This document shows, one piece after another, positions 4,499-33,498 of a stretch of 34,434 nt of DNA. The stretch comes from a virus. Location: the IMG/VR virus record IMGVR_UViG_3300010373_000100, positions 1-34,434 of that record. One strand, 5' to 3'. The position numbers were made by a program, and so were the translations under genes. Numbering within the stretch: position 1 is the first letter of the stretch; every line of letters starts with the position of its first letter. The notes under the pieces were generated by a model that worked only from the letters and a program-made list of their open reading frames with translations, had not been told where the DNA came from and did not search any database.

Positions 4499-4541
4499 GT
4501 ACCGCTTGCTGGTGGTTCGCAAGGCTGCTTATCGTGGAACC

Positions 4542-5432
4542 GTGCCCACCGTCAGCCTGTCCATGATCGTTCGCAATGAGGCGGCCAATCTGCCGGCCTG
4601 CCTGGCCTCGTGTGCGGACCTCTTCGACGAGCTAGTAATCGTCGATACGGGCTCGACAGACGAAACGAAGGCGATTGCGCTACAGGCACTCGACAAGCAC
4701 GGCAATCCGGCTAGTGTCTTCGATTTCGCCTGGTGCGACGATTTTTCCGCCGCCCGCAACGAATCCCTGCGGCACGCCACCGGTGATTGGATCTTCTGGA
4801 TGGATGCGGATGACAGGCTGGATGACGAGAACAAAGGCCGGCTACGATCGCTTTTAGCGGGCCTTGGTGATCCCTGCGGCTATGAGGCAATCGGCGTCTC
4901 ACGCCACCCCGGTGGCGAGGTCGTCTCGTCCAGCAAGCTTCGACTGTTCCACCGATCATTAGGGATGAAGTGGCGATGGCGGGTTCACGAGAACCTGTTC
5001 CCTCTTGATGCAATCGAAATCAAACCATCTGGCGTGTCGATTATCCATGTCGGGAGCCTCGATACAAAGGCGGTGGCAGCTAAAAGCTCCAGAAACTTGC
5101 GAATCCTGTGGCGCGAAGTTCAGGACCGTCCCGAAGAGCCGGCGCTTCGGTATTACATCGGATCTGAGTTGACTTATCAGGGCGATTACGCGACGGCCCT
5201 GGCATCCCTTCATGCGTGCCGCGCAATGTTAGACGCACAAGGCTATCGACCGGTTTATTATTGGTTTTTGCTCTTGGACCTCGGCCAGTGCTACGGTGCA
5301 ACCTGCCAATGGGAGAAACTTGCCGAGATCGAAGCAACGCAAGACGGCGGTAGGATTGCGACCGAACTGCGGCGACGGTTTCCGCCAGCATTGAGGCGCG
5401 GAGCCATGGAAACCATATCGGTATTGGTGTAA
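4542..5432 (+). CDS. Family 2 glycosyltransferase with TPR-like tail
   Basis: A 296-residue cytosolic GT-A fold glycosyltransferase that would transfer a sugar from a nucleotide-sugar donor; the acceptor is unknown. Visible motifs are V-S-L-S-M-I-V-R-N-E at the N-terminus, D-T-G-S-T-D-E at 35-41, D-F-S-A-A-R-N-E at 67-74 and the metal-binding W-M-D-A-D-D at 86-91. The C-terminal third (about 190-260) has helical repeats like the TPR tails of this family. The GTG at 4542 is chosen because family members usually begin 2-4 residues before this core; the frame is open to a TTG at 4506. In phages such enzymes modify virion, DNA or host surface. In this plus-strand island, host-surface modification is a plausible inference. 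Confidence 0.85.
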   Translation: MPTVSLSMIVRNEAANLPACLASCADLFDELVIVDTGSTDETKAIALQALDKHGNPASVFDFAWCDDFSAARNESLRHATGDWIFWMDADDRLDDENKGRLRSLLAGLGDPCGYEAIGVSRHPGGEVVSSSKLRLFHRSLGMKWRWRVHENLFPLDAIEIKPSGVSIIHVGSLDTKAVAAKSSRNLRILWREVQDRPEEPALRYYIGSELTYQGDYATALASLHACRAMLDAQGYRPVYYWFLLLDLGQCYGATCQWEKLAEIEATQDGGRIATELRRRFPPALRRGAMETISVLV

Positions 5433-9557: not shown

Positions 9558-10463
9558 TTACATCGTGACGACGACTTCGCGCGTGGCGCCGAGCATCCGC
9601 GCCATGAACGTCATCTTGAGCGGGATTTCCACTTTGCCGCTCGTACTGGGTGTGGGGACCGGCGCCTGGAGCGCCGCGAAGGTGAATGTCAGCGTCTTCG
9701 TGCCGTTGGTGTAAACCACCGTGCCGCCGACGCCTGGCTGAAGGGCCTGCAAATACAGATCGGTCTCGTCGCTGGTAAACGGCGTGGTCACGGTGACTGA
9801 AACCGTGCGGTCCTGCTCGGGCAGCGCCGTGCGCGTCAGGCTGTTGAGATAGCGCTCCAGGTCAAGGTGGTTATCGAACAGGATCTCGACATCCTTGACG
9901 TTTCGGGCGACGCCGTTGAACGTGAACAGGGCCGATTCATGCTGAAACGGCGCTTCCAGGGGGATCGCCGCGGCAGCAGCTGGAATTGCCGGGAAGGTGC
10001 CGGCCGCCCCGACGGTTTCCGTGAGGCCGGCGAACTCGAAGCCCAGCCGCAGGTTCTGGCCTTCGCTCGAGCGGAACGTCGCCTTGTTGACTTTTACACC
10101 CGCGTAGGTGAATACTTTGGCGATGCGGTCAAACGTGTGGAAGTAAGCTGGGACCGTTTCTCCCAGCGGATACGTCACCGGCGCGGAACCCGTCGGAGTG
10201 CCGCCCAGAATGGCCTGCAACCCCCAGGCGGAGAGTAAACTTGGCACCGGCTCGACTTCCACCGGCCCATCGACCGGGATCTTATTGAGCACCACGTTTT
10301 CGCTGGGGCGCGAGCGCGTGCCGCGGATGCCGCCGGTTTCGGTGTGCTCAGGCTTTGCGCCGAACGCCTCCGAGATGAACTCGTAGGTCTTCGTGATCGG
10401 ATTGGCCGAATCGACGCCCCATTTGACCTGCGAGCCTTGCGAGGGTGCGGCATAGACGGGCAT
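9558..10463 (-). CDS. Major tail tube protein
   Basis: A 301-residue beta-rich protein directly upstream of the chaperone pair and tape measure. It starts with a short soluble lead (V-K-W-G-V-D), contains a segment on a defined internal residue ladder (F-T-F-N-G-V near the middle) and ends in V-E-I-P-L-K-M-T-F, a pattern typical of tube proteins of long-tailed phages. It polymerises into hexameric rings round the tape measure. Length is somewhat above lambda gpV (246). It has no Shine-Dalgarno; upstream lie CCAAGCC (59 nt before the ATG) and AACTAGGG, two of the repeated elements described separately. Confidence 0.85.
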   Translation of the reverse strand: MPVYAAPSQGSQVKWGVDSANPITKTYEFISEAFGAKPEHTETGGIRGTRSRPSENVVLNKIPVDGPVEVEPVPSLLSAWGLQAILGGTPTGSAPVTYPLGETVPAYFHTFDRIAKVFTYAGVKVNKATFRSSEGQNLRLGFEFAGLTETVGAAGTFPAIPAAAAAIPLEAPFQHESALFTFNGVARNVKDVEILFDNHLDLERYLNSLTRTALPEQDRTVSVTVTTPFTSDETDLYLQALQPGVGGTVVYTNGTKTLTFTFAALQAPVPTPSTSGKVEIPLKMTFMARMLGATREVVVTM

Positions 10464-17001: not shown

Positions 17002-18291
17002 TTAATTCGTGTTGCGGATCACCTTGCGCGGCTCGTAAACAAAGGGCACGCCACGCTCGTTGCCGAACACAGCCAGCACCAGGTCGCTGTCCCGCATCAC
17101 GTAATCGTTGATGGGGGCCTCGGTCGAGGTGAACGGCCAGTTCTCGGCATAGGCGAAGGCGCCTTGCTGTTCGAAGGCCCACCAGTATTGACGGGCGTTG
17201 GAAGCACTCAGGTTGCCGTCGAGCGGGTCGGTGAGGGCCTGCTCGAGGATCGTGCTGGCGAACACTTTGTAGTTCGACAGCGGCGTCCCATAGTAATCCG
17301 TCACATTCGGCGCGAAGGTGCGCTGACCCGAGTTGGCGGTCGTGGTCGATCCGCTGGTAAGCGGTTCGATCTGCGTCGCCCGGCGGATATAGTCCACCGT
17401 GGGCACCAAGAACGGCGTGCAAAGGATCGCGTCGAGCTTGACGCTGATCCGTTGGCCGGCCTCCTGGTCGGTCATGCGGCTGGCGAGATACCAGGCCTGG
17501 TTGATGCTGGTCCAATCGGCCAGGGGGTTGCTCTGGGTGTTCACCCAGTTACCGCTGGTCAGGTACGTGTTGTAAGCCGTACCGCCGTAATTGTACGGAT
17601 TTTGCGAGATGCCGATGACCATCGCGAACACCCGGCGTTCCTTCCGGAGGGCGATTTCCTTGCCGACGCTTTCGGCCTGCTGGAGGATCGATCCGGTCAG
17701 ATCGAAGAACGCAGCCTCCTTGGTCACCTCGACGGCCAGACCAAACTTGGTCGCTGCCGGCCAGGTGATATAGCGCTCCAGAAACTGCGCCCGCGGGTGA
17801 GGCTGGCCCGGAGCCATAGCCTCGGCCTTATCGCCGATGCGGCCCAGGCCGATGATCTTCCCGCCGTTGGTCTTGGACGGAATCAGCTTGGTGATCTTAT
17901 CGGCGATGAACTCGGGCGTCGAATAGCCCTCGATCATCTTGGCCTCGATCAAGCCGCCGACCGTGGCGTCCCATGCGCTGATGTCGATGAACTGCGACGG
18001 CTGGACGGCGGTGTTGCCGGCTTCCAGCAAGTTTGCGCTGCGGCGCCAGCGATTTCGCTCGTCGAAGATGTGCTCGGCGTTGTCGCCCAGCATGGCCCGC
18101 GTGACTTCGGGGATCTGAAATTCTTCCGGCTTCGCCTTGCGCGTTTCGAGCAAGATCGATCGACCATTGTGGTCGCGCGTCAGGCCGATGAGCGAATGGA
18201 TCTTGTCGCGGAACTTCCGCGCGCCATCCAGCGGGTTCGAGCCTTCGGCTTTGTACGACTCGTAGAGGTTCTTGAGGCTGGTGCCCTGCAT
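17002..18291 (-). CDS. Major capsid protein (HK97 fold)
   Basis: A 429-residue protein that builds the icosahedral shell. It follows the protease-scaffold and decoration genes, the standard position. Features include an N-terminal arm and helical delta-like part (1-90), a central domain with R-Y-I-T-W-P-A-A-T-K-F-G and V-T-K-E-A-A-F-F-D-L-T, a long spine helix (I-L-Q-Q-A-E-S-V-G-K-E-I-A-L-R-K-E), and a C-terminal part with D-S-D-L-V-L-A-V-F-G-N-E-R-G-V-P-F. It lacks a good Shine-Dalgarno; the CGACTAGGG element lies about 20-28 nt upstream. A terminator-like hairpin separates it from the decoration gene. Expected to be the most abundant virion protein. Confidence 0.85.
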   Translation of the reverse strand: MQGTSLKNLYESYKAEGSNPLDGARKFRDKIHSLIGLTRDHNGRSILLETRKAKPEEFQIPEVTRAMLGDNAEHIFDERNRWRRSANLLEAGNTAVQPSQFIDISAWDATVGGLIEAKMIEGYSTPEFIADKITKLIPSKTNGGKIIGLGRIGDKAEAMAPGQPHPRAQFLERYITWPAATKFGLAVEVTKEAAFFDLTGSILQQAESVGKEIALRKERRVFAMVIGISQNPYNYGGTAYNTYLTSGNWVNTQSNPLADWTSINQAWYLASRMTDQEAGQRISVKLDAILCTPFLVPTVDYIRRATQIEPLTSGSTTTANSGQRTFAPNVTDYYGTPLSNYKVFASTILEQALTDPLDGNLSASNARQYWWAFEQQGAFAYAENWPFTSTEAPINDYVMRDSDLVLAVFGNERGVPFVYEPRKVIRNTN

Positions 18292-20834: not shown

Positions 20835-21629
20835 CTAAGCGGCCCGCGACCCGACCTGCGTTGCCAGCACCCACCTCAGATAGCATCGGCACCGTGGATG
20901 CGCCGGTGGGCCGCCCGGATAGCGGCTGCCGTACACCAACTGCCCGTGCCCGTCGAGCGGCTCACAATGATCGCACACGTCCTGGTCTTCAGCCGTCTGC
21001 CAGATCGGCTCGAGTTGCCGACCCTCCTGATTCACATACCGCCCACTGATGTCGATCGGCCTGCCCGCCGCATCGACCGGCAAACCATATCGTCCGACGT
21101 GCGAGTAGTTGCCCTCGGCATCGCGCACCAGCCGCGGTCGAGTATCAGGCACGAGGCTTTGATGAAACCAGAGCACCGCCACATGCTCACCCGCTGACGC
21201 GGCCCTGGTCGTTTCGGTGATGGCGATGTTCTCCAGCCGGCTGTCGGCCATGAATACCGTCGCCAGTCCCTCACGTACGGCCTGGGAATCGCCCGCGGCC
21301 TCTCGCACCGCGTCATCCGCCAGCTCACGCGACGTGGCCACCACCTCGTGGGCCAGCGTCTGAGCGAACGGCACGGCCCATTGTTGGGCAGCCTGATCGA
21401 AAGCGCCAGCCGTGATGACCACCCCGTGGCCAATCAGCAGCACGGCGCCGGCCTCTCGAAAGATGTCGGCCAGCTCGCCCGCCATCGTGTGGGCCAGGTC
21501 AGACTCGAACTGATCGTAAAGGATCGCCTCGGGAGAAGACAAAGCCCGGCGGTACTGAGCCTCGAAGATCGGCTCTAGCTCGGCGACGATTTGCTGCTCA
21601 ATGGCATCGCGGTTTTGAAGTTCTGGCAT
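20835..21629 (-). CDS. Phage head morphogenesis protein (MuF/SPP1 gp7-type)
   Basis: A 264-residue protein. Residues 1-130 are helical, and 137-143 read I-T-E-T-T-R-A, a typical family motif. The C-terminus has C-D-H-C (219-222) and P-A-H-P-R-C-R-C (242-249), the hallmark zinc-type end of MuF-like proteins. This minor capsid protein binds the portal and enters the prohead, and some carry added effector domains, but none is visible here. It normally follows the portal directly, but eight genes separate them here. No Shine-Dalgarno is present; CCAAGCC lies 29 nt before the ATG. Confidence 0.85.
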   Translation of the reverse strand: MPELQNRDAIEQQIVAELEPIFEAQYRRALSSPEAILYDQFESDLAHTMAGELADIFREAGAVLLIGHGVVITAGAFDQAAQQWAVPFAQTLAHEVVATSRELADDAVREAAGDSQAVREGLATVFMADSRLENIAITETTRAASAGEHVAVLWFHQSLVPDTRPRLVRDAEGNYSHVGRYGLPVDAAGRPIDISGRYVNQEGRQLEPIWQTAEDQDVCDHCEPLDGHGQLVYGSRYPGGPPAHPRCRCYLRWVLATQVGSRAA

Positions 21630-25456: not shown

Positions 25457-28009
25457 TTACGGGTATTCCGTCTCCCAAAGCTCAGCGGCCCGGCGGGCGA
25501 GACGCCCAGCGGCGGTTATCGGCGGTGCCGACTCGTGCAACGCCAGCGGCTTCGAGGTATCTCCCCCAGCCAACCACTCCTTGAACTGCCCGAGCGTCAT
25601 GGCCGCGATCGGTCCGACCTTCCAGCCGTCTGGATAAGCCGATTTGTACGCCTCGAGCGCATCGGTCTCGTTCAGATATCCGATGAGGCATTTGTGCTCG
25701 TCGAACGATCCATCGGCCCGCACCTGGTCGACCACGAACACGAGCTGACTTTCCGGATCGGGACCGATGAAAACGTCGACAGCGTCGCCGTCGGCGCCCG
25801 ACTCCGTGCGACGGAAATAGCCATAGTGGGCAGGCATCCTGATCGACCAATCGTCACCCTTTCTGCGCGTGGCTCCTTTGGGCGATTCGATCGTCACAGG
25901 CAGTCCGTACCAGGAGAAGCGGCCCATGCGGTAATTGCCGGATTCTTTCTGAGCATCCGTAGGATTTCGCTCGGTGGCATCTGCAGCAGCCTTGATCGCC
26001 GCGCGAATATCTGGGGCGGTTTCGTGCAACTTCCGCCGCTCGCGAACCAGCCCGGCCGCCTGGCCATAGCCGTTGATGTCGACCATCGCTGACGGCTGAA
26101 CGGCGCTGGCGGTTTCGGTTGGATTGGCTTCAGGCTTATCGTCGGGCTGGGGCTGCCGGGCCGGTACTTTGTCACCGGTTCCGGCACGTTCACCATTCTT
26201 CGGCTCTGCCAGTGATGTCACAGCGCCGCTCGAATCCATTTGATCCGCTTTGGCTGTGATCTCGGAAGGCTTCGGCTTCGCCCCAGCCGCCACCTCTTCG
26301 TCATAGTCATACCCCTCTTCGGCGGCCCGCTTCTTGCGCGAGATAACGCCATCGTCATCCAGCACCTTCAGTCGATCCGTTTCGCTCTTGCGGTCGCGCG
26401 TCTCGATCGTCGGGAAGCTGACGTGCAGCTTGAGCATCTTGCGAATGGCCCAGTAAGACCCGGCCTCACCAAAGCGGTCGAACCGGCCGTAGCGGGCCGC
26501 ATTGCCGATCACCAGCCACATCAGGTCGTGCCAGTAGGATCCATAGCCGAACTGTAGGGCCTGGATGTTTTTGACGAAGGGCGCCTCCGACACGAGCGTG
26601 CTGCTGTAGTTGGCGTTGCTGCTATCGCCGGAGATCATAAATTCCGGCATCGCCCACTGCGTCGCTACCCAGCGGAGCATGGCCTGCGCTACATCGACGA
26701 AGGCCGGGCCGCGCTCATGGCCAGGCGGCGGGTCCACCCAGTCCATGCCAAACGGCATGTCGAGCAATGAGGCGCCCGGGTAGCCGTAGTTGTTAAACGT
26801 CCGGCTGCCGCCGCCCGGCATGTACGCGGTGTTCGTGTAATCGGTTTTGCTGGCCCGGAACGCTGCCACATCGTCCCTGGTGACGCCCTCCATGTGCTTG
26901 CGAATACCGGCGATAGCAGCCTGGAAGCTCGCCCCGTCGGCTGTCTTGGTCAGCAGGTTGTCGGACTTCTGCAGGTACTTCAGGGCCCCATAAAAATCGC
27001 TGATGCCCCGCTTGATGTTCGTGTCGGAGAGCTTGAAATGCTGAAGCGACGCGGCCGGCAAAAAGTCGCTTTCTCCCAGATCGTCGAACCACGCACTGGC
27101 CCCGTAAACGGTCGTCACGTCGTGCGCCGCCGTCAGCATTCCGAAGGTGCAATCGATCCGGGACTGCCCCACGTCGACGCCGTAATCGGCCAATGCCTCG
27201 GCCGTCCAGTCGCTTGCACCTTGTTCGGTGATTTGCTCCGGCTCGATGATCCGCAGATCGGTGCGCCCCACATGGTCGCAGTGAGTCTGCAGGAAATACT
27301 CACCATCGCGGCGGGTTCGCATCAGGAGCTCGCCCTCTTTTCCCATCGCCCCGCACCACTTCGTGCGCTCCAGGAACTCGTCCAAGACTTCCTGTACGGC
27401 GGCCATCAGCCCGTCCACCGGCTTGTCGCCAACCCGCTTGGGCGCGAAAGCGTACTGAAACCCGCGGCCGCCCACGGTGTAGTTCACCAGGTTTCGCAAC
27501 ACCCCCTGGGCCGGGCAGTTGACCTGGCAGACAATTCTGGCGATGCCGCGGATAAAGCCCAGATCGATTTCAGTGATGACAAACGGCCGGTCGCGCCCCT
27601 TGGCCCGGTCGACGCGGGTCGACAGCGGATTGAGGTACGGCTGCATCCCGTAGCCCAACGGCTGCCCCCACGTGCTGGCCTCGCCGCCGGGGCCGAACGT
27701 ATCGAGCCATCCGTACGCGCCGTAGCTTTCCAGCAGGTCGCGGTCTTGGCGGGCGCGCTCGTAATCAACGCCGTCTTCCGGCAATGGGTGCGGTGTATCG
27801 TTCAGCGCGTAGGCCAGCTGTTCGTGGCGGCGCGTGATGGCTTGCGTGCGGGCTTCGGTCTCTAATAACTGCCGCTCGCGTTGGTCAATGGCCCGCTGCT
27901 CGAGCTCCAATTCCAGCACGCGGCGACGCTCCTGCAACACCTCGAGCTGTGAGGCGGGCGAATCGAGAAGAATGACGCGGGAGCTGGGCGGCTGGCTGCG
28001 CTTGGGCAT
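25457..28009 (-). CDS. Portal protein with C-terminal pyrophosphatase-like (InPase-type) domain
   Basis: An 850-residue portal, lambda gpB type. The N-terminus is a coiled-coil Arg/Glu/Gln-rich arm (20-65). The portal core spans about 85-560 (I-A-R-I-V-C-Q-V-N... M-P-E-F-M-I-S-G-D-S-S-N-A-N-Y-S-S). A Pro/Glu/Lys-rich linker follows (about 575-640). Residues 705-815 carry I-E-S-P-K-G, H-Y-G-Y-F, D-G-D-A-V-D-V-F-I-G-P, D-Q-V-R-A-D-G-S-F-D-E-H-K and A-Y-P-D-G-W-K, the pattern of the phage InPase-type domain (described among polyvalent proteins). Portals form the dodecameric DNA gate. A fused enzyme-like domain could enter with the DNA or act in the head. CCAAGCC lies 29 nt before the ATG. Confidence 0.85.
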   Translation of the reverse strand: MPKRSQPPSSRVILLDSPASQLEVLQERRRVLELELEQRAIDQRERQLLETEARTQAITRRHEQLAYALNDTPHPLPEDGVDYERARQDRDLLESYGAYGWLDTFGPGGEASTWGQPLGYGMQPYLNPLSTRVDRAKGRDRPFVITEIDLGFIRGIARIVCQVNCPAQGVLRNLVNYTVGGRGFQYAFAPKRVGDKPVDGLMAAVQEVLDEFLERTKWCGAMGKEGELLMRTRRDGEYFLQTHCDHVGRTDLRIIEPEQITEQGASDWTAEALADYGVDVGQSRIDCTFGMLTAAHDVTTVYGASAWFDDLGESDFLPAASLQHFKLSDTNIKRGISDFYGALKYLQKSDNLLTKTADGASFQAAIAGIRKHMEGVTRDDVAAFRASKTDYTNTAYMPGGGSRTFNNYGYPGASLLDMPFGMDWVDPPPGHERGPAFVDVAQAMLRWVATQWAMPEFMISGDSSNANYSSTLVSEAPFVKNIQALQFGYGSYWHDLMWLVIGNAARYGRFDRFGEAGSYWAIRKMLKLHVSFPTIETRDRKSETDRLKVLDDDGVISRKKRAAEEGYDYDEEVAAGAKPKPSEITAKADQMDSSGAVTSLAEPKNGERAGTGDKVPARQPQPDDKPEANPTETASAVQPSAMVDINGYGQAAGLVRERRKLHETAPDIRAAIKAAADATERNPTDAQKESGNYRMGRFSWYGLPVTIESPKGATRRKGDDWSIRMPAHYGYFRRTESGADGDAVDVFIGPDPESQLVFVVDQVRADGSFDEHKCLIGYLNETDALEAYKSAYPDGWKVGPIAAMTLGQFKEWLAGGDTSKPLALHESAPPITAAGRLARRAAELWETEYP

Positions 28010-28779: not shown

Positions 28780-29145
28780 TCAACGAACGGAACACGCTCC
28801 GGCCTCAATACGCCCGTATTCTAGCGACAGATCAGGGTATGGCGAGTCCATGACCGGTCCGCCCGACTCCCGCGCGAGCAACCGCCCCTTCAAAATCTGA
28901 TACTCGTGCGCGTCGGCCATCGGCTCCACGCCTTCGCCCAGGCAGACGCGACAAATCCACTTCCGATGCACGACGTTTTCCACCAGCTCAATGTTGTGAC
29001 TGTAGACGCGCTCGCACCGGCCAGGCGGGCAATCGAGTTCATCAAGCGACTTGCGGCATAGAACGCAACGGCGCGTGCCGTGGTCGACCTGATGCTCCAC
29101 AGAGTCTTCGTGACACGGTACGTGATTACTGCTGATTGCGATCAT
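28780..29145 (-). CDS. Small zinc-binding hypothetical protein
   Basis: A 121-residue protein with C-V-L-C (27-30), C-P-P-G-R-C (39-44) and C-R-V-C (65-68), suggesting a zinc-ribbon-type or HNH-like fold. No clear nuclease H-N-H is visible, but H-x-x-E-x-x-V-E-H near the start and C pairs are reminiscent of such families. HNH endonucleases next to terminases help packaging in some phages, so this is a candidate partner; the call is tentative. It overlaps the terminase end by four nt (ATGA). Confidence 0.6.
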   Translation of the reverse strand: MIAISSNHVPCHEDSVEHQVDHGTRRCVLCRKSLDELDCPPGRCERVYSHNIELVENVVHRKWICRVCLGEGVEPMADAHEYQILKGRLLARESGGPVMDSPYPDLSLEYGRIEAGACSVR

Positions 29146-30764
29146 ACGGAACGAAATCTCCTTTCTCCGGGTGCAAGGTAGGCATTGCCATTGGCGCCGA
29201 CCACCGGCTGGCGCGCCGGTTCGGATTCGTGGCCGATCGGGTTTAGATGCAGGTCTCCGGCAATCGCCAGGGCGGCCGGAAGCGTCATCGCCAGGGCTAT
29301 GGCCCGATCGCAGTGGCCGCTTTGCTTGTCCTCTGGGGCCTTGATGGCGAAATGATGCTGTTTTTCCTCGATCGATAGCTTCAGCAAATCGTCCCGGAGT
29401 TCTTTGTGGGCGAATAGCTCGATGCGGTGGTTGTTAATCGCGTCGACGATAGCCGACGCCATATCCTGGTTGTCTCTGGCGCCGTGAATTTCTTTGATGC
29501 GCATCGCCAGCGACGGGTTGGCGGCCACATCCTTCGCCAGCAATTGCAGGCTTAACTGCGCCTGCCAGGGATCGACGCAAAGCTGATGTAGGCGGAACTT
29601 CCGTCGGGCCTCGACCACCGCACGATGCACTACGGTCAGGTCGATCTTCCTGCCGGGGAAATCGGACGGCTTCCAGCTTTGAATGCTCGCCAGGCGGACT
29701 TTGCCGGTACGCGCGTGGACGCCCACCACAGCCAAGGCCGCGTGATGGCCGCTATACGCCAAGTCCAACCCGGCGATGAACGGCTCATACTGAGGGTCGT
29801 ATCCAGTCATCGGCGCCAGCGACGTTGTGCAGGCGTCAATGTCCGCGGCCGACAAGGTTTCCGATCCTTGCTCAACCCATTGGTTCAGCCAGACACGCTG
29901 AAACTCCGTGCCGAACACGACCTGCTCGCGCTGGCTCTCAATTTCTTCCTTGCTGATCCAGGAAGCCACCGGCCCAGGCAAACTACGAAAGTGCCACTTT
30001 TCTGGATGGGTGCGGGCATACTCCATGACCTTCCACTGCCAGCTTACACCCCGGCCAAAGCCAGCATTGGCAATCACGACGACCATGCAGTTGGTCTTTT
30101 TGCCGGCCGACGTGATGAGCATGTCCCACAGCTTGGGGTTCTTCCAAACCGTCAGCTCGTCGCCGATGACAAAATCAGGATTTGACCCCTGGTTTGTAGC
30201 CTCGTCGCCCGTCAGGATCTTGAGCAGGCTGCCAGTGCGGCGGTTCTTTACGTCGCGGTTATAAACCGAAATGGTATCGCTCAGCCACGGGTTGCGGCGG
30301 ACCATCCGGTCCATCGCTTCCGCGATTTGCTGGGCCTGCTTGAGGGTGCTGGCAACCGCGATCGCTTCCAGGGGGCGCGGGCAGACGTGCATCGCCCAGC
30401 CGGCCATGTGGGCCTCGCCGGTCGTCTTATCGTGCCCCTTTGGGCGCTCGAAATAATAGCGGAGCTTGGCGTCGCCATGACCGGTGACCATCCGCAGCCA
30501 GCCCTGGTCGGCGGCTTCGTAGTCTTCCCGCTGCCAGGGATCGAGACAGGACTCCAAGGGCTTTGATGACCCCGATGCGTCAATCAACAGGCGACGGCGG
30601 AAGTCCTGGGGGTTGAGCATCCGGTGGGGTATCTCCGCCGCCAGGCTCTCCAACGCTTCGACCGATTGCGTCGATAACCAGCCCTCGGCTAGCAGCTTCT
30701 CCCCGTAAGCGATCGACTGCAAGAGCTGCTCGTTCGTTAGGAGGCAAGACGAGGGTGTGCTCAT
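29142..30764 (-). CDS. Terminase large subunit
   Basis: A 540-residue motor that packages DNA into the prohead. ATPase motifs: a Walker-A-like R-P-K-G-H-D-K-T-T (107-115) and Walker B F-V-I-G-D-E (198-203). The nuclease half has G-L-D-L-A (332-336), V-D-P (397-399) and D486, the acidic metal-binding set of RNase H-like terminases. Length matches the family. The ATG at 30764 overlaps the small-terminase gene by 185 nt; an internal ATG at 30620 would cut this to 41 nt, but the frame upstream of it is GC-rich at third positions, so the longer form is likely real. No Shine-Dalgarno is present. Confidence 0.9.
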   Translation of the reverse strand: MSTPSSCLLTNEQLLQSIAYGEKLLAEGWLSTQSVEALESLAAEIPHRMLNPQDFRRRLLIDASGSSKPLESCLDPWQREDYEAADQGWLRMVTGHGDAKLRYYFERPKGHDKTTGEAHMAGWAMHVCPRPLEAIAVASTLKQAQQIAEAMDRMVRRNPWLSDTISVYNRDVKNRRTGSLLKILTGDEATNQGSNPDFVIGDELTVWKNPKLWDMLITSAGKKTNCMVVVIANAGFGRGVSWQWKVMEYARTHPEKWHFRSLPGPVASWISKEEIESQREQVVFGTEFQRVWLNQWVEQGSETLSAADIDACTTSLAPMTGYDPQYEPFIAGLDLAYSGHHAALAVVGVHARTGKVRLASIQSWKPSDFPGRKIDLTVVHRAVVEARRKFRLHQLCVDPWQAQLSLQLLAKDVAANPSLAMRIKEIHGARDNQDMASAIVDAINNHRIELFAHKELRDDLLKLSIEEKQHHFAIKAPEDKQSGHCDRAIALAMTLPAALAIAGDLHLNPIGHESEPARQPVVGANGNAYLAPGERRFRSV

Positions 30765-32374: not shown

Positions 32375-33292
32375 CTATGATCGGATCGTAAACGTCCCCT
32401 TCTCAGCCCGCGCGAACCGCGACTCCTTGCCCTTTTTTTCGATCTCTCGCAGGATGGCCGAATAGAGCGTGGCGTGCGGTGTCTTCCCCCCAGGGCTGGT
32501 CCAGTAGCCTTTCTCAGCCATCGCCGTGATCATATCCTTCGTCCCCATCGGTGCCCCAGCCTCCTTCAGCACCTTCGCCGCGGCGTCGATGGCGCTGAGC
32601 TTGCCATTCTTCTCGGCCTTCTTGGCCTTGCCGGTCTTCTTGTCAGCGGCCGTCGCCTTATCGCCAGGCTCAAAGCACTTCGCGCAGAAGCGCTTGCCAT
32701 CTTCTTCCTTCCATTCGTGGTCGCCGCCCTTGGGGCACACGGCGTCCTTGGGTGATGAATTGGCCACAACTTTGCTTTCGCTCTTACTCGCGTTCGTTGC
32801 GGCCCTGGTGGCCCGTGCCGTAGCCTTCTGGGACGCACGATTCTTGGCCGCAGACTTTTTCCGCATCTCGATCTCCTTAGCTTCGGTTTCCTCGGGCGAT
32901 CCGGTCGCCCACCCGTCGGCGCAACATGCGCCCCCCGTGATCTCCCTTACGTACCCCGCCACAATCGCCTCGGCATCCTCGCCTAACGCTTGGCAAACAT
33001 CGTCGAGCGTTAATAGCTCGCCCCGCGCGATGTATTCGGCGATCGTCCGCGCGTTGCCCTCAGACAGAATGCGATGCCTGTTGATCTGCTCGACGCGTTC
33101 GTTCATTCTCGCGTCGGCTTCTGCCTTCAGGCGGTTGGCCCGCAACACCATCTGGTCGGTCACCTCGTCGGGCGAGAGGCCGACCGTCGAAAGCACATCC
33201 GCGTTCTTGGCCACGTACTCAATCGTGTAGCCCGTTGTTTCCGCCGCATCGAGAAGGAGCGGCGCAAGGTCGTGAATGGTTGCAGCGCTCAT
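32375..33292 (-). CDS. HARE-HTH domain protein with central basic region
   Basis: A 305-residue protein. Residues 1-150 are helical. A Lys/Ala/Ser-rich basic region (about 150-195) follows, resembling histone-tail-like DNA-binding. A zinc-type motif (C-P-K-G-G...C-A-K-C) lies near 205-225. The C-terminal 74 residues (232-305: A-A-A-K-V-L-K-E-A-G, E-K-G-Y-W, T-P-H-A-T-L-Y-S-A-I) form a HARE-HTH domain, known from restriction, RNA polymerase delta-type and chromatin proteins. It probably binds modified or specific DNA; with the DNA methyltransferase nearby, a link is tempting. The ATG at 33292 overlaps the previous stop by ATGA. Confidence 0.75.
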   Translation of the reverse strand: MSAATIHDLAPLLLDAAETTGYTIEYVAKNADVLSTVGLSPDEVTDQMVLRANRLKAEADARMNERVEQINRHRILSEGNARTIAEYIARGELLTLDDVCQALGEDAEAIVAGYVREITGGACCADGWATGSPEETEAKEIEMRKKSAAKNRASQKATARATRAATNASKSESKVVANSSPKDAVCPKGGDHEWKEEDGKRFCAKCFEPGDKATAADKKTGKAKKAEKNGKLSAIDAAAKVLKEAGAPMGTKDMITAMAEKGYWTSPGGKTPHATLYSAILREIEKKGKESRFARAEKGTFTIRS

Positions 33293-33498
33293 TCGTAATA
33301 CACCCCTCCCATCGCCCCGCGAACGCGTATTAATCCCAGGCTGGTAAGTGCTTCGTGGCGGCCCTTGCGGTCCCGCTCGCGCCGTTCTCGCAGTCGCGAT
33401 ACCCGACGGTCGAATGCCGCGTGATTGGCGCACTTCGCGCAAATATTCTCCCCGTCCTTGGTATCGATCTCCGCCATGCGCTTGGCACAAAATTTCAT
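33289..33498 (-). CDS. Small zinc-type basic protein (69 residues)
   Basis: A 69-residue protein. The ATG at 33498 has GGAG six nt upstream and overlaps the previous stop by ATGA, so it is chosen over a longer frame reaching 33795. C-A-K (4-6) and C-A-K-C (20-23) suggest zinc binding; the second half is Arg-rich (R-R-V-S-R-L-R-E-R-R-E-R-D-R-K). It may bind nucleic acid. It overlaps the HARE-HTH gene by four nt. Function unknown. Confidence 0.7.
   Translation of the reverse strand: MKFCAKRMAEIDTKDGENICAKCANHAAFDRRVSRLRERRERDRKGRHEALTSLGLIRVRGAMGGVYYE

What the first reader, a model, noticed from the sequence alone, without database searches (positions are those of the whole stretch)
25457..26000. 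Portal protein fused to a pyrophosphatase-like InPase-type domain
After the portal core and a Pro-rich linker, residues about 705-815 show the E-S-P-K-G, H-Y-G-Y, D-G-D-A-V-D-V-F and F-D-E-H-K pattern of the phage InPase-type domain known from polyvalent proteins. Fused to the portal, it would be present in twelve copies at the DNA gate. It might remove pyrophosphate, act on nucleotides, or be delivered to the host.
Basis: partly seen in the sequence, partly recalled or inferred. Interest (0 to 1): 0.7.

Follow-up and report, generated by a model that had tools for sequence, protein, structure and literature searches.

The report
Phage portal carrying a pyrophosphatase domain
The ring-shaped gate protein of this phage's head carries, on a flexible tail, an apparently intact enzyme domain of the pyrophosphatase type; the combination was described in 2017, but here it sits on a different kind of gate, and the domain turns out to recur on at least four gate families, including that of therapy phages whose structures are solved.

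Summary
The 850-aa minus-strand gene at 25457-28009 is a lambda-type portal protein (Pfam PF05136, E 2.4e-11) followed by a ~140-aa disordered linker and a C-terminal InPase domain (PF18823, E 7e-45; residues 685-813 = nt 25571-25957). The domain folds like a shortened family-I pyrophosphatase: all 50 best rows of the structural re-alignment are such enzymes. The residues matching E. coli E20, Y55, D65, D67 and D70, plus an FDEHK strand, are kept in all 12 portal-borne copies compared. The kind is not new: Iyer et al. 2017 reported portal-InPase fusions (BcepF1), and I find the same C-terminus in Pbunavirus portals (Pa193, PDB 9b41), where it has no cryo-EM density, so it is probably a floppy tether inside the head. 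What is added: InPase sits on four portal families (PF05136, PF06074, PF04860, PF06381). The window copy is about 57% identical to InPases on Mu-type portals whose portal halves share no detectable similarity, so the module probably moves between portals. Likeliest role: a virion-carried hydrolase of a pyrophosphate-type bond, used in the infected cell. Delivery and substrate are inferred, not shown.

The parts
25457..28009 (-). portal-InPase fusion gene, 850 aa (P0001)
26552..27538 (-). portal core, PF05136 Phage_portal_2 match (aa 158-486)
   Evidence: PHROG portal match aa 155-626
25958..26374 (-). linker aa 546-684, 83% disorder-promoting and 17% hydrophobic residues
25571..25957 (-). InPase domain PF18823 (aa 685-813)
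   Evidence: AF2 model pLDDT 87.6
25874..25888 (-). ESPKG motif; E708 corresponds to E. coli PPase E20
25817..25828 (-). HYGY motif; Y729 corresponds to E. coli PPase Y55
25769..25792 (-). DGDAVDVF motif; D740, D742, D745 correspond to metal-ligand/catalytic D65, D67, D70
25691..25705 (-). FDEHK motif; D770/E771 and K773 probably correspond to D102 and K104 (by order and spacing only)
25460..25570 (-). C-terminal tail aa 814-850, predicted helix at its end
29142..30764 (-). terminase large subunit, upstream of the portal on the same strand (packaging context)
20835..21629 (-). MuF-like head morphogenesis protein downstream (Pfam just under cut-off)
17002..18291 (-). major capsid protein (PF25209)

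Best explanation
A lambda-family portal protein has acquired, at its C-terminus behind a ~140-residue disordered linker, a divergent family-I-type pyrophosphatase domain (InPase) whose catalytic residues are intact. SHOWN here: the fusion, the fold similarity, the conserved active-site set, and the recurrence of InPase on several portal families and other virion proteins. BY ANALOGY with Pbunavirus E217/Pa193 portals of the same layout: twelve copies hang on floppy tethers inside the packaged head. INFERRED: the portal works as an anchor that loads a fixed dose of enzyme into every virion, and the domain hydrolyses a pyrophosphate-type bond (PPi or a nucleotide made in defence) in the newly infected cell, after being freed from the portal and passing down the tail, as other InPases are proposed to do in polyvalent proteins.
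For: Pfam and PHROG matches. AF2 model pLDDT 87.6, pTM 0.80; best Foldseek match is P. aeruginosa PPase (E 0.059, prob 0.84); all 50 listed VIA-align rows are family-I PPases, Z 5.5-4.3, about 110 residues at about 3.9 A. hhalign with E. coli Ppa over MPAHYGYF...DGDAVDVFIG, prob 86-90. E708, R715, Y729, D740, D745, Q762, D770, E771, K773, Y788 invariant in 78 diverse domains, D742 always D or E; all kept in 12 of 12 portal-borne copies. The same domain is C-terminal to portals of four families, and is joined to a DNA-transfer protein (L070), a Mu gpI-like protein (L176) and polyvalent proteins with ART, DarA_N, ddrB-ParB and SLT domains. Pa193 portal (PDB 9b41) has InPase at 628-763, and residues 529-765 have no density; the E217 barrel projects into the head and unfolds after ejection. 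Iyer et al. 2017 infer injection for portal-fused InPase.
Against: Portals stay in the emptied capsid, so delivery needs cleavage or release, and no such step is shown here or in the papers read. Fold match is middling (Z about 5; Foldseek E not below 0.001). K29, E31, D97 and K142 of E. coli PPase are not clearly conserved, so the substrate may not be PPi. No enzymatic test of any InPase of this family was found in the held library.
Confidence: 0.48

Rival explanations
1. The enzyme acts in the producing cell, not the next one: free portal subunits or procapsids late in infection hydrolyse PPi (or a nucleotide) released by phage DNA replication and transcription; carriage in the virion is a by-product.
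For: Needs no release or translocation step. Active-site residues are conserved. Iyer et al. also offer PPi clearance.
Against: The packaging motor itself makes ADP and Pi, not PPi (established knowledge), and hosts have an abundant PPase. Recurrent fusion to portals, to a DNA-transfer protein and to virion proteins suggests that loading into the particle matters.
Confidence: 0.27
2. The domain is structural: an OB-like fold retained to bind DNA, scaffold or nucleotide at the portal crown, with no needed catalysis.
For: Some canonical PPase residues are missing; it sits on a structural protein; E217 barrel order depends on DNA.
Against: Complete conservation of the acidic/Lys/Tyr set across widely different contexts at 37-58% overall identity is the signature of an active site. 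No density in two cryo-EM maps argues against a fixed structural role.
Confidence: 0.15
3. Artefact: an assembly join of two genes or a chance motif match.
For: No close relative of this portal was found to check the junction directly.
Against: InPase E 7e-45 in the same frame as the portal; even composition; same layout in many unrelated records.
Confidence: 0.02

Closest known systems
Portal-InPase fusion of Burkholderia phage BcepF1 (BcepF1.124, YP_001039808.1), Iyer et al. 2017 (PMC5512222)
   Same: C-terminal PF18823 InPase behind a linker on a portal protein; next to TerL and head morphogenesis genes
   Different: Its portal is PF06381 (Phage_portal_3); the window's is PF05136 (lambda family). 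InPase identity only 37%.
Pbunavirus portal gp19 (Pa193, PDB 9b41; E217; LBL3)
   Same: 765-aa portal with InPase at 628-763; dodecamer; C-terminal 529-765 without density
   Different: PF06381 portal; the two structure papers do not mention a pyrophosphatase; InPase 46% identical.
Portal_Mu (PF06074)-InPase fusions in IMG/VR and genome contigs (L128, L130, L029, L033, L207, L208, L210)
   Same: Closest portal-borne InPases (up to 57% identity); grouped with the window in the domain tree, support 93 and not starred
   Different: Portal halves show no detectable similarity (hhalign prob 0.1; BLASTP's main match covers only linker and InPase).
InPase domains of polyvalent proteins
   Same: Same Pfam family, same N-terminal PTxAQKExGNY motif and active-site set
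   Different: There InPase is one of many effector domains; here it is alone on a portal.
Family-I soluble inorganic pyrophosphatases (PF00719; E. coli Ppa)
   Same: Core fold and the E20, Y55, D65, D67, D70 positions
   Different: 21 instead of 35 residues between E20 and Y55 equivalents (hairpin missing); D97, K29/E31/R43 region and K142 not conserved; no PF00719 match in P0001.

Membership tests
InPase PF18823 | profile match over the curated cut-off, full length | tested here: met
   152.6 bits against 26.8; profile 1-134 of 135
InPase PF18823 | conserved metal-binding acidic residues | tested here: met
   E708, D740, D742, D745, D770, E771 present; all but D742 (D or E) invariant in 78 domains
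InPase PF18823 | lacks the beta hairpin between strands 1 and 2 of other family-I PPases (Iyer et al. 2017) | tested here: met
   E708-Y729 spacing 21 against 35 in E. coli Ppa; global hhalign puts the gap there
InPase PF18823 | pyrophosphatase activity | not testable with these tools
   no experiment found in the held literature either
Family-I inorganic pyrophosphatase PF00719 | Pfam PF00719 match over cut-off | tested here: not met
   not listed for P0001 at E up to 1; sub-threshold in relatives
Family-I inorganic pyrophosphatase PF00719 | OB-type PPase fold | tested here: inconclusive
   all 50 listed rows are PPases but Z only 4.3-5.5 and Foldseek E 0.059
Family-I inorganic pyrophosphatase PF00719 | full E. 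coli active-site set (E20, K29, E31, R43, Y55, D65, D67, D70, D97, D102, K104, Y141, K142) | tested here: inconclusive
   E20, Y55, D65, D67, D70 mapped with confidence; D102, K104, Y141 plausible by order; D97 and K142 positions not conserved
Lambda-family portal PF05136 | profile match over cut-off and packaging gene context | tested here: met
   43.8 bits against 32.9; TerL just upstream
Lambda-family portal PF05136 | dodecameric ring in the virion | not testable with these tools
   single-sequence AF2 model of the portal was unusable (pLDDT 36)
Polyvalent protein | several effector-type domains combined in one protein | tested here: not met
   only one non-portal domain found

The most novel reading that the evidence does not exclude
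InPase is a mobile virion-cargo module that has been grafted repeatedly onto different portal families because a portal C-terminus loads a fixed 12-copy dose into every head; the enzyme is released at ejection and destroys a nucleotide made by host anti-phage defence.
Probability: 0.18. Interest if true: 0.75.

Novelty: new member of a known kind. Interest (0 to 1): 0.38.

Why it matters
The fusion itself was published in 2017, but its function has stayed untested in the literature held here, and the two Pbunavirus cryo-EM papers read do not discuss the unmodelled 237-residue portal C-terminus as an enzyme. Showing that the same domain occurs on at least four portal families, and at the C-terminus of portals of well-studied PB1-like Pseudomonas phages, makes the question (is a portal used as a carrier for an injected enzyme?) directly testable in laboratory phages.

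Tried and rejected
Assembly chimera and chance match: rejected (and recurrence). Close relatives of this phage by portal, TerL or capsid protein in IMG/VR, INPHARED and GTDB contigs: none found with these pattern- or BLAST-based searches, so the age of this particular fusion cannot be dated; the tools may leave out records very near the window. One common origin of all portal-borne InPases: not rejected by the domain tree (AU p 0.24), because the domain is short; separate origins therefore rest on the unlike portal halves, not on the tree. Two further AU tests did not finish. A second PF05136-InPase fusion was looked for in about 40 records and not found; the PF06381 scan rang nowhere, not even in its controls, so it shows nothing. 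Global sequence alignment of InPase to E. coli Ppa is unreliable after D70, so the FDEHK assignment rests on order and spacing. The single-sequence model of the portal core failed. Mass spectrometry of Pbunavirus SCUT-S1 lists the portal at 84.5 kDa with 59% coverage, slightly more than the modelled region alone could give, but peptide positions are not stated, so it does not prove that the C-terminus is kept.

Full report
WHAT IS THERE. The window is a 34.4-kb virus record. On the minus strand the order is terminase large subunit (29142-30764), small genes, portal (25457-28009), and further on a MuF-like protein (20835-21629), major capsid protein (17002-18291) and tail tube (9558-10463). The portal ORF is 850 aa without interruption. 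Pfam finds Phage_portal_2 (lambda family) over residues 158-486 and InPase over 685-813 (E 7e-45); PHROGs finds a portal family over 155-626 and InPase-bearing families over the C-terminus. Between them lies a linker (546-684) with 83% disorder-promoting and 17% hydrophobic residues.

WHAT THE DOMAIN IS. An alignment of 84 InPase domains gave an AlphaFold2 model of residues 660-850 with mean pLDDT 87.6. Foldseek's best match is the P. aeruginosa inorganic pyrophosphatase, at a weak E of 0.059; when the best 1000 chains were re-aligned, all 50 rows listed were family-I pyrophosphatases (Z 5.5 to 4.3, about 110 residues at about 3.9 A). Sequence profiles agree: hmmsearch of the PDB with InPase domains returns the Pbunavirus portal at 5.6e-59 and then mostly family-I pyrophosphatases at E 0.007 and weaker, and hhalign pins MPAHYGYF...DGDAVDVFIG to the E. 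coli PPase Y55...D65/D67/D70 stretch. The Z values are middling, so homology to PPases rests on fold, motifs and order together.

ACTIVE SITE. In 78 non-redundant domains E708, R715, Y729, D740, D745, Q762, D770, E771, K773 and Y788 never vary, and D742 is D or E; all 12 portal-borne domains keep them all, D742 included. E708, Y729, D740, D742 and D745 correspond to E20, Y55, D65, D67 and D70 of E. coli Ppa. FDEHK probably supplies the D102/K104 equivalents, but this rests on order and spacing. Positions matching D97 and K142 are not conserved, and the hairpin carrying K29/E31 is missing (spacing 21 against 35 residues), as Iyer et al. 2017 reported for this family. The domain therefore looks catalytically alive, but its substrate need not be PPi.

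WHERE ELSE IT OCCURS. 465 phage records encode an InPase relative. In many, the domain is C-terminal on a portal: BcepF1, Kyle, LBL3 and TropicalSun on PF06381 portals, L075 likewise and L072 on PF04860, L083 on PF04860 and L029 and L033 on PF06074, L128 and L130 on PF06074, L207, L208 and L210 on Mu-type portals by a home-made profile, and L234 on PF04860 (the portal match lying in the same 1215-aa frame as the InPase). In some of these (L029, L033, L083, L208, L210, L234) more sequence follows the InPase. The window is the only PF05136 case seen. Elsewhere InPase is joined to a DNA-transfer protein (L070), a Mu gpI-like protein (L176), or sits in polyvalent proteins.

THE MODULE PROBABLY MOVES. 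The window's InPase is 56-57% identical to those of L128 and L130, and the domain tree places it with the Mu-portal copies (support 93, below the star threshold). Yet the portal halves show no similarity (hhalign prob 0.1), and the only significant BLASTP match between whole proteins covers linker and InPase. The simplest account is transfer of the domain between portal genes of different families. The tree alone does not prove separate origins (AU test p 0.24 for a single clade).

LOCATION. For this phage the location is not shown. For E217 and Pa193, Pbunaviruses with the same layout, the portal is a dodecamer whose C-terminal barrel projects into the head; Pa193 residues 529-765 had no density, and the deposited chain's InPase lies at 628-763. 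So the domain is most likely inside the head on a floppy tether.

HOW IT MOST LIKELY WORKS. The portal anchors a fixed dose of enzyme inside each particle, and the enzyme acts on a pyrophosphate-type bond in the infected cell. Iyer et al. proposed injection and either nucleotide or PPi substrates. The weak step is release: portals remain with the capsid, and no cleavage is shown. Action in the producing cell needs no release and is the main rival; a purely structural role is less likely given the conserved active site.

KNOWN OR NEW. The architecture was published. This is a new member of that kind, on a portal family other than that of the published example. The added value is the breadth over four portal families, the evidence for domain transfer between portals, and the link to unmodelled portal C-termini in solved Pbunavirus virions, which makes the function testable.

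Noticed in passing
window 25970-26029 and 25481-25540 (-), aa 661-680 and 824-843: A ~20-aa element (LHETAPDIRAAIKAAADATE / LHESAPPITAAGRLARRAAE) flanks the InPase on both sides; 3 of 2000 shuffles score as high (post hoc), and the LHE[ST]A motif occurs nowhere else in the window. Docking helix, insertion scar or protease site are all possible.
   Followed up: partly
L029 / L217 (IMGVR_UViG_2786546467_000001): A single 1749-aa ORF joins a Mu-type portal, InPase and an SNF2-type helicase: a portal carrying a polyvalent-style tail.
   Followed up: no
L070:1280-4432: A DNA-transfer (ejection) protein family (phrog_770, 1.9e-81) with InPase at its very C-terminus; ejection proteins are delivered into the host, which supports the delivery reading.
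   Followed up: no
L176:2390-4480: Mu-like gpI (PF10123) N-terminal match with InPase further along the same ORF, in a Verrucomicrobiota contig.
   Followed up: no
window 4506-5432 (+): A family-2 glycosyltransferase on the strand opposite to the structural genes.
   Followed up: no
window 32375-33490 (-): 371-aa protein ending in a HARE-HTH domain (PF05066, 1.1e-10).
   Followed up: no
window as a whole: Portal core, TerL and capsid protein found no close relatives in INPHARED, IMG/VR or GTDB contigs with the searches used: a little-sampled phage lineage.
   Followed up: partly
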